NCBI GenBank assembly: GCA_903813345.2
Contig: CAIIXF020000001.1
Coordinates: 24,233,915 to 24,297,914 of the forward strand
Reading direction: 5' to 3'
Source: Owenia fusiformis
Lineage: Eukaryota > Annelida > Polychaeta > Sabellida > Oweniidae
DNA: 64,000 nt
The notes beneath the pieces were generated by a model. The model was given only the letters and a program-made list of their open reading frames with translations, did no database searches and was not told where the DNA came from. Shown piece after piece: positions 51,060 to 57,000 of the stretch; the stretch's first letter is position 1; every line of letters starts with the position of its first letter. Made by a program: the position numbers and the translations under genes.

Positions 51060-54000
51060 ATGGATAAAATTGCAGCCCCAGTGAAGCTCGCAAGAGTAAG
51101 CTAAAATATTAATGCTTTACGATCATCAATAGAGTATTCCTATTTACAAATTTACCTTGGTACCATTCCCTAGTTATTAGATATATTCATTTCTGTACTT
51201 TACTGTAGGTGTTACTCTAAAATAATTTTGTAAAAATTATCAGAAATTGTCTGATTTCAGGCACAGATTTCTGACATCACTTTAGGCTATAGGCTAGAAG
51301 AATTGTTGTTGTTGTGTTGCATAAGCCGCTGTTTCCTCGGCAGTTCGTCTCTTGTACTATAAATTCTCTTTGTGCTCTCTCATGTGCTTCAATTTGCACT
51401 TGTTGCGCAGAGAGAGAAGTAATGATTTTGGAAAAAATGCTACACTTGTCCATGTTGTTTTCTGGTTTCATTAAAAATGTCATTATTATATTAGATTATT
51501 ATGTTTTGTCTGTCATATGTTTTTAGGTAACCAAAGTGCTTGGCCGTACTGGATCTCAGGGTCAATGTACTCAGGTAAGAATGAAAACTTGTTCATTGAC
51601 TTAAGGCGACGCTATATTAAGGACAGGGTGCATGTTGGGAAATTTTCTGCATTCCTCAATTGAGTCACATGTTATTTTTCAAACATGAATAACTCCTTCC
51701 CCACATTGTCTACATCTTCCAAGTTTGCACAAAGAGTGCACTTCTGTGCCTAGAAAAGCCTTGTGAGAAGGTTTGTTTTGTAAAATGTATAAAAAATGAG
51801 AAAATTCAGTGAAAAAAATTTCTGAAAATTTTCTGATTTTTTTCACTGAATTTTCTTGTTTTTTATACACTTTATCAAAACATTCTTCTCACAAGTCCTT
51901 TCTAGGCACATAAGTGCACTCTTTGTGCAAAACTGGAAGATATAGACAATGAAGGGAAGGAGTGATTCTTGTTTGAAAAATAACATGTGACTCAATTGAG
52001 GAATGCAGAAAATTTCCCATCATGCACCCTGACCTTAAGGTCTCATGGAAGTTAACAGGAAATGACAAAACAGGAAGTGACAATTTTTTTGGCATTTTTT
52101 AGACATTTTTTGAACAAAGATAACAGAGTTCACTTTTGACCTCCAGTCAATTCAACTAGTGCCAGATACCATTTACAGGTCCAGGATCACAATGTTTATG
52201 GTCAGAATGACCCTAAATATCATGAAATAACCTTTTCAGCCCTATGAAAATGTGACTGAAAAATAGCTAAAAGAAGGAGGTAGGAAAGGTCACTGAACAG
52301 AATCTTTTGAATTTTTCAGAAAATGTGCCGAATATATTGCTCTAAATGGTACAATCTTTGAAAATTTGATATCATTCATAGAAAGAGAAAAAAAATGAAA
52401 AAACTGATTTGAAAAGCGATCTATTTTCCTTTTTATGACCGCAATTTTTGTTTACGACAATTTTCTAAAATTTCAAAGATTGTATCAGTTAGAGCATTAT
52501 ATTGGGCACATTTTCTGCAAAATTCAAAAGATTCTGTTCAGTGACCTTCCCTAGCTCCTACTTTTAGCTTTTTTTCAGTCACACTTTCAAGGGACTAAAA
52601 AGGTTATTTCATCATGTTTAGGGTCATTCTGACCATGCACATTGTGATCCTGGTCATGTAAATGATATGTGGAAACAGTTAAATTGACTGGAGGTCAAAC
52701 CAGAACTCTGTTATCTTTGTTAAAAAAATGTCTAAAAATGCCCAAAAAATTGTCACTTCCTGTTTTGTCATTTCCTGTTAACTTCCATGAGACCTTAAAT
52801 AATAAGTACAAAAAATGACTGCCATATTTTTTTGATAAAGACACATGTTTTTAAAATCTGTTTACCTTGTATATGAATTGTGTATCTTGACTACTACTTT
52901 TTTCAAGGCCTGACAGAGTCACTAACATGCTAAATATAAGAGTTAGCTGACGTTTGGGAGTCTGACTTACCTTCTAAAGGTTAGAACCCGAATCTTAATG
53001 AAACCATATCACCTTTGTTCCGTCAACCATGGAGCATTTGCCACAACATCCAAGAGGTAAATCATGGATCGAGAAAATGAATGATTTCCTTGTAAGTTCC
53101 GGAAGTTTCAATACGAAAAATTACCGAACATATGTGAAAACCGAATATTTGTTCGTTGTTTTCACGATTTACAGGTTCGTTTGTTCTTCAATGTTTTGGT
53201 CTAAATTATAAAGCATCACCAACAGGTCTTACTCTATTAATCGACTAATACAGCAGACGGCTCATATTTCTACGTAGCATTTCATTCAGACCAATAGTGG
53301 GAGTGTAGATCACGCAGTTTCGTTCGTTGCATACTTCACTTGAAATTGGTAATTTTAAATATTGACTACTTCACTTAGCTTGGCGGATGTAGAACATTGC
53401 TTAATATTCTTTTAATTTTCACACCAGACATGCTTGGTTGACACGTCAACAAAGTAAAGTTCAAGGGTCAATGCGTTATTTCGTGATAACTACAACGCCT
53501 TCCCGGAAGTCAACATTGATGAAAAATGAAAAAGTCGGAAAAGCATTTACGCTAATTTCTATCAAATGCTATGTTTATGCATCATCATCGACGCAACAAA
53601 GGTGATATGGTTTCATTAAGATTCGGGTTCTAACCTTTAGAAGGTAAGTCAGACTCCCAAACGTCAGCTAACTCTTATATTTAGCATGTTAGCGACGCAG
53701 TCAGGCCTTGAAAAAAGTAGTAATGAAACATGTCAAAGTTAAAATCACACATGAACGCATTTTTCCAAACTATGAATTGGAGGTGCATGGATCCCCAAAG
53801 CTAGCATGAAGAGTGCGAAGTGAGGCTAATTTTTGAAAGTTTCAAGGAGTAGCCTTGCAACAGTCACACATTTGCAAGAGTCTAAAATTTCCACAAATCA
53901 TCTTACCTTTCCCAGGAACAACGAAGGAGCATGAAAATGTGCACTTCTTGCATTGTTAGAGTATAATAAACCTCAAACCATTGTAAATTCCAAATATTTC

Positions 54001-57000
54001 ATGTCCACATTTTGTTTGCCGGAACTACTTCTAGACTTCCTGATTAATCCTCATGCAAGTTTTGTGACTACACCAAGTGGCATGGATTATCACTTGTATG
54101 TTTTATCTATTACAGTGTAATTATCATGATAGATACATGATAGAGGCTTTATGAATGATAAACAATGGAAACATGAATGAAGATAACTCTGGACTAAAAA
54201 ATAGTTCCAGGAAACAAAATGGTGGACATGAAATATTTAGAATTCACAATGGTTTGAGCTTTATTATACTCTAACAATGCAAGAAGTACACATTTCCGTG
54301 CTCCTTCGTTGTTCCTTGGTAAGGTAAGATGATTTGTGGAAATTTTAGACTCTTGCAAATGTGTGACTGTTGCAAGGCTACTCCTTGAAACTTTCAAAAA
54401 TTAGCCTCACTTCGCATTCTTCATGCTAGCTTTTGGGGATCCATGCACCTCCAATTCATAGTTTGGAAAAATGCGTTTATGTGTGATGTTAACTTTGACA
54501 TGTTTCATTAGTCAAGATACACAATTCATATACAAGGTAAACAGATTTTAAAAACATGTGTCTTTATCAAAAAAATATGGCAGTCATTTTTTGTACTTTT
54601 TATTTAATAAGCCTTAAGGTTCAGCTGGAAAGTAACATTTTGGTAAAAAATTGCTATACCTGCACTAGTCCAACAACATTAGACCTAGCCCGGGCCTCGT
54701 TTCTTATCTGACATGTGTTATGGCCCGGCTAGGTCTAACCTCCATGACCATTTTGCCTTTGATGCGTTAATTTAATCGTTCAGCAGGTTTCGACAAGCGG
54801 AACTAATTGAACCCTTAAAACATGGCAATATTACACAAAGAATGTGATTCAAGCATGCATACATACCTTATAAACACATACACCCCGTCCCGTATCCCCC
54901 TTAGACCCTATTGATGCATAATTACGAAAATATTGGAGACAGGTTTGGAATATGACGAAAATGTCGGTCAGTTTCGGTAACATCGAAATTGCAAATCGTT
55001 TCAGGAATTAACCGTCATCACGGCACTGCATTAACGAACAGTTGGTTTGCAATTAATAACTATTTTGCGTGTATATACGCGCTATATAAATTAATCAAAG
55101 ATACCTGTTATCCTCAAAATTGATCTTTTTACCCCGAGTAATCGCGATAATAATTATCAATCTATTTGACAACAATTTCGTTTCGCTGGTAGTTTAATTT
55201 TACGATCCGGGACACTCAGACGAACAGACACAATGACAGACATGCGGAAATGTCACTTTAGAGATTGGTAAGTGTAGCCTCATTTTACTCGTATAAATGA
55301 ACATTTAACACAATATTATTGTGTTAAATCACTTGATGTTATGTGTTTTTATATTATTGTCAAGTATCAGTTGCACGTTATCGCGGAAAAATGGTTTCGA
55401 TGGATTCAGAACTTGCATCAAAGGAAATAATAGTAAGGAGGTTAAACTCAATAATGGCCCCAAGAAAATTCCTAATAATAAAGAACGCCGTTATTGAGTT
55501 TAACGACGTTGAACTATACCTGCACATGTTATTTTCTGGTACAAAATTAAGTATGAAGGCATGTGTGTATTTCCTTGCTTTTTTCAGGAAAGTATCATTA
55601 CACTGTCTACTTTTAGTAAACCTGGAAACAGGTCAATGGTAGCTCCTGTGTTGTCTGGAAACTTTGAAAGAAAATTTGGAAAAAAAGAAATTGTGAAATA
55701 TCAGAATTTCCTGGAGTTCCCATTGAACTCCTACTAGATATTCTTAAAGAAGACAGTGTAATGATACTTTCCTGAAAAGAGCAAGGCAATTGACACATGT
55801 CTTCATACTTTATTTTGTACCAGAAAATAACATGTGCTGGTATAGCAATTTTTTACCAAAATGTTACTTTCCAGCTGTACCTTAAAGTGCAATTAGAGAA
55901 TAATAACATTAGCCAGGAACAAAAATGCGATGAGGCGAAAAATATGTTTGTTTGTATCCTTTTTGGGCATTATATGTTGCTGCAGTCTAAAAGCCCAGGG
56001 AGAGCCCTGTTTATTGTGATAGCTTCAATGTTCAATTTAGTGCTACAGTTTGGACCATAAATAAAGGAGTATGTAGTCAAGCCCTACATTCACAATATTG
56101 TCTAGATTTACTTTCTGCGAAAGCTATTTGGATTTTGATATAATAGCTTTCCCACGGAGCATTTGGACAGCTGAATGATTGTGACCTTTGAAATCGAATT
56201 AAGTCAATCAGCGGCTTACTTTTGGTCTCTAACTGTGTCTTACATCAGTATCATCAATCCGTGTAAGTATTAGAGGGCTGAAATATTTCTTTTTCGATCA
56301 AGACTTGTAAATTGTTCATCGAATGAATGTTTTTTAGAGCTATTTCCAATATGGCGGTTTGCTAGGAGCGAGATACGCAACAAACGAAATGAATTTTGAG
56401 AATTAGTTAGGTTCAGACAACCTCCCGAGATTTCCGAAAATGTCCGAGCAGAAAACGCCATATTGGAATTTGGCAGTAAAAACATTCACTCGACTAACAA
56501 TTACAAGTCTTGATTGAAAATGAAGTACTTCAGCGCTCCAATACTTGCACAGAAGGATGATAATGATGTTTAACATAGTTAGAGAACAAAAGTAATCAAA
56601 ATCTAACATGGCTCTCGAAGTGAGTAAGTCTAGATACATCTCCCGTGAAATTTGTATATTTTACATTTTGTATACTCTCATCCACTGATGTATGACCTCT
56701 TGAAAATTCTCTTATTTTTAACATGAGAAATCCTCACTTCAGCAAATCCATGATTATTTATGGTCCAAACTGTAATAACCTATTCGCATGTCATGGCATG
56801 TCGTGACATTTTACATGTGAATTGCCTTGAATACATCTCGTCATCTTCATACATTTTGCTTTATTAATGCTGCTCTCTTGGTTGAAAAACTAATGTTCTT
56901 TGATCTACTTCAGGTCCGTGTTGAATTCTTGGATGACAGTAATCGATCCATCATCAGAAATGTCAAGGGGCCAGTCCGAGAAGGTGACATTCTTACTCTG

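What the first reader, a model, noticed from the sequence alone, without database searches (positions are those of the whole stretch)
51575..56913. RPS28 intron 2 is about 93% end-to-end TTAA/TA palindromic elements, with TTAA sites shared between neighbours
E1, E2 and E3 lie in a row with one TTAA at each junction (52035 and 52795), and E5 starts 10 bp after E3 ends. E6 uses TA, and E4 sits inside E3. Three different TTAA families at touching sites suggest that an existing element's TTAA flank is a favoured target, or that the elements move as a chain.
Basis: seen in the sequence. Interest (0 to 1): 0.78.

Follow-up and report, generated by a model that had tools for sequence, protein, structure and literature searches.

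The report
Jumping elements stacked end to end
One intron of a ribosomal protein gene is almost entirely built of small mobile DNA elements that landed on one another, and elsewhere in the same genome these elements share an end with a relative far more often than random landing predicts.

Summary
E3's family really begins and ends TTAAGGCGACGCTATA...TATAGCGTCGCCTTAA, so E3 spans 51601-54617. E1 and E2, sharing one TTAA at 52035, lie inside E3's subterminal TTAA; E3's damaged right end shares TTAA 54614-54617 with E5. All four TTAA families end in GG, as Kolobok elements do.

End-to-end contact is frequent in this genome and not random. Of 282 ends of 141 best-scoring intact copies, 14 (5.0%) touch another of the four families through one TTAA, against 5 of 718 other TTAA sites in the same flanks (odds ratio 7.4, p 4e-5) and 0 of 103 within 60 bp. 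In five capped end lists 20 of 500 ends are contacts; I estimate 0.2 expected. Chains of three and four elements exist. E1-E5 contacts occur in all four end combinations, so they are not one fixed composite.

Best explanation: sequential transpositions that prefer TTAAs at the ends of resident relatives, as in IS30 'IR-targeting'. No transposase was identified, and internal TTAAs of E2 are hit too. Movement as a chain is not supported.

The parts
51575..56913 (+). RPS28 intron between the coding pieces ...GQCTQ and VRVEF...
   Evidence: splice sites read; downstream exon 56914-57033 matches Pfam Ribosomal_S28e
51601..54617 (+). E3, TTAAGGCG family (about 1015 bp when intact), interrupted by E1+E2 and by E4; right end 6 bases short
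   Evidence: true ends from 20 copies; window pieces joined over the inserts align at 98.8% with an intact copy
51617..52038 (+). E1, 422-bp near-palindrome with TTAA at each end, nested in E3's subterminal TTAA
52035..52798 (+). E2, 764-bp near-palindrome; shares TTAA 52035-52038 with E1; its right TTAA continues into E3
52035..52038 (.). TTAA shared by E1 and E2
52894..53720 (+). E4, TA-flanked element with inverted ends CTACTTTTTTCAAGGCCTGAC, nested in E3 (TA at 52892-52893 and 53721-53722)
54614..54617 (.). TTAA shared by E3 (damaged end) and E5
54614..55885 (+). E5, 412-bp TTAAGGT near-palindrome carrying an insert
54666..55516 (+). INS, 851-bp element in E5 with 9-bp duplication TACCTGCAC (54657-54665, 55517-55525) and imperfect inverted ends TAGTCCAACAACATTA / TAGTTCAACGTCGTTA
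   Evidence: a second case with another 9-bp duplication in L104
56044..56774 (+). E6, TA-flanked element with inverted ends CAGTTTGGACCATAAATAA (flanking TA included)

Best explanation
E1, E2, E3 and E5 are non-autonomous, near-palindromic elements with TTAA target duplications and GG termini, most like Kolobok. They arrived one after another. Besides ordinary TTAA sites, the insertion machinery prefers TTAAs at the ends (and sometimes just inside the ends) of resident elements of the same group, whatever the family. A new copy that lands in such an end TTAA shares it, so elements accumulate in end-to-end chains. In the RPS28 intron E3 came before E1 and E2, which entered its subterminal TTAA, one of them using the other's edge; E5 and E3 meet at one TTAA. 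Shown: the anatomy and the excess of contacts. Inferred: that the cause is recognition of resident ends, by the transposase or by end-bound protein.
For: 14 of 282 ends of 141 intact copies touch an E1/E2/E3/E5 edge, 12 of the 14 across families; 5 of 718 other TTAA sites walked in the same flanks do (Fisher p 4.3e-5). By distance: 0 of 103 sites at 5-60 bp, 5 of 566 at 61-400 bp, so the excess is at the edge, not the neighbourhood. In the five lists (100 rows each of 248, 704, 656, 105 and 600 matches) 20 of 500 ends (17 distinct junctions) are contacts; my estimate is 0.2, from 2313 end matches divided by 0.65 for the W filter, over 2 x 3.9 million TTAA sides (502 TTAA in the 64-kb window). 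Chains E5|E1|E2|E5 (L153), E2|E5|E1|E3-like (L155), E2|E1|E5 (L160), E2|E5|E2 (L164): all 18 four-base overlaps printed read TTAA (16 edge contacts, 2 E2-in-E2). E1-E5 contacts in all four end combinations (L056, L081, L153; L082; L090; L155). The flank motif predicts only 0.8 to 1.2-fold for E5 edges, although E5 is the commonest partner. E5 edge versus inside: in the 400 rows of the four non-E5 lists 12 rows show an E5 edge and 1 an E5 internal TTAA (strings).
Against: Internal TTAAs are hit too: 11 of 141 copies lie in an internal TTAA of E2 (5), E4 (2), E6 (2) or INS (2), and at least 9 of the 500 listed ends lie in E2-internal TTAAs, not all near an end (positions 645 and about 585). Non-touching neighbours also cluster: 5 of 718 is itself about 15 times my genome-wide estimate, so part of the excess is regional. 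The comparison with the nearest 103 sites alone is weak (p 0.026). There is a mild preference for G/C beside TTAA that gives 1.6 to 3.9-fold for E1, E2 and E3 edges. TTAAGGT outside elements is not a preferred target (5 of 246 versus 26 of 1512, p 0.79). No transposase was found.
Confidence: 0.5

Rival explanations
1. Permissive hot spots: elements gather in a few accessible, tolerated places; the edge of an earlier insertion is just one more usable TTAA there, and TTAAs inside repeats are equally used.
For: Non-touching neighbours are also more frequent than my genome-wide estimate (5 of 718); E2, E4, E6 and INS internal TTAAs receive insertions (11 of 141 copies); different families share an identical flank at different places, e.g. 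ACTGGTCTGTATA beside one E2 and two E5 ends.
Against: TTAAs within 60 bp of an element should then be as good as its edge, but 0 of 103 are occupied by the four families against 14 of 282 edges; E5 edges outnumber E5 internal TTAAs 12 to 1 in the 400 non-E5 list rows.
Confidence: 0.27
2. Composite mobilisation: touching elements move together as a longer unit using the outermost ends.
For: Some ends have a fixed flank at many places (E2|TTCATCATGCA, E1|TTCATTTTTAGAT, E2|TTTGTATTTCCAA), and L148/L149 share 1310 bp that include a 49-bp E2 end, so captured ends do spread in larger repeats.
Against: E1-E5 contacts show all four end combinations, partners vary freely, and members of a chain differ in identity to the references, e.g. 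E2 85%, E1 73%, E5 85% in L160 and E2 99%, E5 91% in L009.
Confidence: 0.07
3. Chance in a genome crowded with TTAA elements.
For: Exact-end counts are in the hundreds per family, so some contacts must occur by chance.
Against: 20 of 500 listed ends against an estimated 0.2; 14 of 282 against 5 of 718 local sites. Degenerate copies not counted by exact strings would raise the expectation, but a tenfold rise would still leave it near 2.
Confidence: 0.03
4. Nuclease-assisted capture: a homing-type nuclease of the I-PpoI kind, as encoded by KolobokP elements, cuts at TTAAGG ends leaving TTAA overhangs, and excised elements are joined there.
For: All four families end TTAAGG; I-PpoI leaves 4-base TTAA 3' overhangs (PMC9587614, section 15) and its site CTCTCTTAAGGTAGC contains TTAAGGT (string recalled, found in the listing of PMC6294500); PMC9587614 (section 5) lists Owenia fusiformis among KolobokP hosts, the species I suspect here.
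Against: TTAAGGT outside elements is not preferred; E2-internal sites without GG are hit; the nuclease gene was not searched for in this genome; the authors find no strong target preference for KolobokP.
Confidence: 0.07

Closest known systems
Kolobok DNA transposons and their MITEs (T2-MITE of Xenopus)
   Same: TTAA target duplication and RR (here GG) termini, the stated Kolobok features (PMC6004289, passages; PMC9587614, passages)
   Different: no Kolobok transposase identified here; ends are TTAA-GGA/GGT/GGC, not the AGGRR of T2-MITEs; the arms take up nearly the whole element
KolobokP (solo LTDRs and multimers)
   Same: a Kolobok lineage reported from Owenia fusiformis among others, with short end-inverted repeats and tandem multimers (PMC9587614, sections 5, 7, 8, 15)
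   Different: KolobokP multimers repeat one family and share a whole terminal repeat; here different families share only the 4-bp TTAA; KolobokP duplications are 3-5 bp; LTDRs are about 450 or 660 bp with inverted repeats of 11-18 bp
IS30 IR-targeting in E. coli
   Same: an element with dual target specificity: hot spots, or insertion next to the inverted repeat of a resident copy (PMC9333248, abstract and passages)
   Different: bacterial, copy-out-paste-in through circles, 2-bp duplications, same element; here several TTAA families in an animal
Adjacent or nested insertion of other transposons (Helitron tandem insertions; Bari elements near other Tc1-mariner elements)
   Same: insertions beside or into relatives reported (PMC5148889 and PMC4877112, passages)
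   Different: no shared 4-bp site in the passages seen
piggyBac
   Same: TTAA target duplication
   Different: PMC9587614 (passage) separates Kolobok from piggyBac by its RR/YY termini, which these elements have

Membership tests
Kolobok superfamily (non-autonomous) | TTAA 4-bp target duplication | tested here: met
   TTAA at both ends in nearly all E1, E2 and E3 rows (exceptions by a base change in L055, L014, L020, L028)
Kolobok superfamily (non-autonomous) | 5'-RR and YY-3' termini | tested here: met
   GG next to TTAA in E1, E2, E3 and E5
Kolobok superfamily (non-autonomous) | related autonomous element with a Kolobok DDD/E transposase | not tested
[quoted passage not shown]
   E1, E2, E3 and E5 are single near-palindromes without an internal coding region; whether they derive from solo LTDRs was not tested
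piggyBac | termini other than the RR/YY of Kolobok | tested here: not met
   termini are GG...CC; exact piggyBac end sequence is recalled, not checked
IR-targeting as in IS30 | insertion next to resident inverted repeats above background | tested here: met
   14 of 282 against 5 of 718; analogy of behaviour only
IR-targeting as in IS30 | transposase directs it through recognition of the inverted repeat | not testable with these tools
   needs a transposase and an assay

The most novel reading that the evidence does not exclude
TTAA transposons of the Kolobok kind in animals have a second target mode: the ends of resident relatives, shared across families, act as landing pads, through transposase-end contact or through a KolobokP-type nuclease that opens TTAAGG ends to TTAA overhangs. 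Ordered chains of different families grow this way and supply end-to-end composites from which new elements can form.
Probability: 0.25. Interest if true: 0.75.

Novelty: new variant of a known kind. Interest (0 to 1): 0.6.

Why it matters
Target choice of TTAA transposons is usually described as TTAA plus chromatin. A strong preference for ends of relatives, acting across families, would explain how mosaics and chains of short elements build up in introns and would give a natural system to test end-directed insertion in animals. It also warns repeat annotators: E3's ends look like separate elements or spacers when another element sits in its subterminal TTAA.

Tried and rejected
E3 as an element beginning at 52795: rejected, because all 20 E3 rows extend 16 bp further at both ends. 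E2 neighbours that looked like tandem E2 copies with odd limits (120, 645) are E2 copies inserted into an internal E2 TTAA (L023; L155). A short target motif as the whole cause: flank preferences are weak and TTAAGGT outside elements is not enriched. INS as a control family for TTAA inside unrelated repeats: inconclusive, because only 100 exact copies of its 19-mer exist and older copies are uncounted. A search for other TTAAGG palindromes in the held DNA gave no new family at the thresholds used, although unexplained ends such as TTAAGGCTCTTTAGC and TTAAGGTGACATTTAA recur and were not counted as contacts in the lists. tRNA and Rfam scans of the region were empty. Literature searches for multimers and adjacent TTAA insertion returned nothing; some searches returned mostly unrelated papers; I make no claim that the phenomenon is unpublished. 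Empty sites in other individuals could not be looked for.
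Full report
Observation. Intron 51575-56913 of the RPS28 gene (Pfam Ribosomal_S28e on the next exon) is 94% mobile DNA (5016 of 5339 bases). Copies of E1, E2, E3 and E5 are numerous: the first look listed 1200, 1864 and 922 rough candidates for the E1, E2 and E3 queries and 1494 for E5 without its insert (the E3 query includes E4). The best-scoring copies are close to the window copies: median identity 99.3% for 38 E1, 94.8% for 37 E2, 99.4% for 27 E3 and 98.1% for 39 E5.

Corrected anatomy. In all 20 E3 rows the element begins TTAAGGCGACGCTATATTAAATA and ends TATTTAATATAGCGTCGCCTTAA, with a few base changes. In the window the outer left end lies at 51601-51616, just before E1. 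E1 and E2, which share TTAA 52035-52038, are therefore inserted into E3's subterminal TTAA. E4 sits in E3 at a TA. E3's right end has lost six bases net and its TTAA, 54614-54617, is also E5's first. Joined over the inserts, the window's E3 aligns at 98.8% with an intact copy. E5 carries INS, 851 bp, with a 9-bp duplication; L104 holds a second E5 with INS at another place, in the other orientation and with another 9-bp duplication.

Is contact non-random? I fetched the scored copies: E1, 38 loci; E2, 39; E3, 29 of 30 besides the window (one interrupted copy left out); E5, 39. Four loci without an intact focal copy were dropped (L043, L111, L119, L147); the window copy (L001) and L104 were not counted. 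This leaves 141 copies and 282 ends. Fourteen ends touch an edge of E1, E2, E3 or E5 (E2-E2 1, E2-E5 2, E2-E1 2, E3-E5 3, E3-E1 1, E1-E5 4, E5-E5 1). Fourteen more ends (11 copies) lie in an internal TTAA of E2 (5 copies), E4 (2), E6 (2) or INS (2). As a local control I walked outwards from every other end to the first element of the four families: 5 of 718 TTAA sites were such an edge. Fisher odds ratio 7.4, p 4.3e-5. A second count by distance gave 0 of 48 (5-30 bp), 0 of 55 (31-60), 1 of 101, 2 of 161 and 2 of 304. Edges against all sites within 60 bp gives p 0.026.

Genome-wide ends. Exact end motifs followed, 13 bases later, by A or T were counted over the whole assembly: 248 (E2a), 704 (E5), 656 (E1), 105 (E3), 600 (E2b). 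Only the first 100 places of each are printed, in contig order, so the 500 rows are not a random sample. Read by eye, known-edge contacts are 5, 5, 2, 5 and 3, that is 20 of 500 ends or 17 distinct junctions, three being seen from both sides; a few partners have one changed base, and the window's E3-E5 contact is among them. With 2313 matches, an assumed 0.65 for the A/T filter and 3.9 million TTAA sites (502 in the 64-kb window), I estimate 0.2 by chance. Degenerate copies would raise this, so 'roughly 50 to 100-fold' is a fair statement of a rough number. E2a ends followed by GG number 35 in the assembly. Seven contacts from the lists were fetched: six show the partner element aligned across exactly one TTAA, and the seventh (L163) shows an E5 pair and an E2-internal insertion, with the listed E2b-E5 contact lying next to alignment ends that overlap by five bases.

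Chains. Loci chosen because they had contacts, hence not counted above, hold E5|E1|E2|E5 (L153), E2 with a nested E2, then E5|E1|an E3-like end at 77% (L155), E2|E1|E5 (L160), E2|E5|E2 (L164), and L023 holds E2|E5|E5. All 18 four-base overlaps printed are TTAA; 16 are edge contacts and 2 are an E2 in an E2-internal TTAA; four other overlaps printed there have other lengths. E1-E5 contacts occur right-right (L056, L081, L153), E1-left/E5-right (L082), E1-right/E5-left (L090) and left-left (L155). A single travelling composite is thus excluded for this pair.

Cause. The bases beside used TTAAs show a mild gain of G and C at positions 1-4 (C 61 of 246 against 221 of 1512). This predicts 0.8 to 1.2-fold for E5 edges and 1.6 to 3.9-fold for the others, so it does not explain E5, the commonest partner. 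TTAAGGT outside elements is not favoured (5 of 246 against 26 of 1512). In the 400 rows of the four lists other than E5's, E5 edges appear 12 times and E5's internal TTAAs once. Against a pure edge rule, at least 9 of the 500 rows lie in E2-internal TTAAs, some 17 bp inside its end and some deeper, and regional clustering is real. I conclude that resident ends, and for E2 also some internal TTAAs, are preferred targets, and I infer recognition of end sequence longer than TTAAGGT.

Comparison. TTAA duplications with RR/YY termini are the Kolobok marks (PMC6004289 and PMC9587614, passages). The transposase was not sought, so membership is likely but not proven. IS30 has a dual specificity, hot spots or next to its own inverted repeats (PMC9333248, abstract and passages): the closest behaviour. 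KolobokP (PMC9587614, sections 5, 7, 8, 15 read) forms multimers, but of one family sharing whole terminal repeats. The assembly (498 Mb in 525 contigs, twelve of 32-62 Mb among the contigs seen) resembles Owenia fusiformis (505.8 Mb, 12 chromosome-scale scaffolds, 43% repeats; PMC9977687, passages), which PMC9587614 lists as a KolobokP host; the species is my inference.

Noticed in passing
window 54666-55516; L104: INS: an 851-bp repeat with 9-bp target duplications and imperfect inverted ends TAGTCCAACAACATTA / TAGTTCAACGTCGTTA, of MULE-like duplication size (recalled); 100 exact copies of a 19-mer in the assembly.
   Followed up: partly
window 8510-10333: Open frame of 608 codons matching Transposase_21 (tnp2, PF02992, E 1.5e-15), a CACTA-type transposase by recall.
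   Followed up: partly
lists; L148, L149: E1 and E2 ends with the same flank at many places (TTCATCATGCA, TTCATTTTTAGAT, TTTGTATTTCCAA): larger repeats that carry captured element ends; L148 and L149 share 1310 bp including a 49-bp E2 end.
   Followed up: partly
E2 and E5 inserted at the same point of another repeat, AGAGCCTTAAAAT|TTAA|GGCTCTTTAGC, which itself looks like two facing TTAAGGCTCT ends: a possible further family.
   Followed up: no
L158:537: A TA element (E4) inserted in E5 just inside an E3-E5 contact, echoing the window where E4 sits in E3.
   Followed up: no
window 14295-15747, 27045-27398, 30772-31110 (- strand): Several frames with thrombospondin type-1-like repeats (WSxW ... 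CSVTCxGG, judged by eye), apparently exons of one gene.
   Followed up: no
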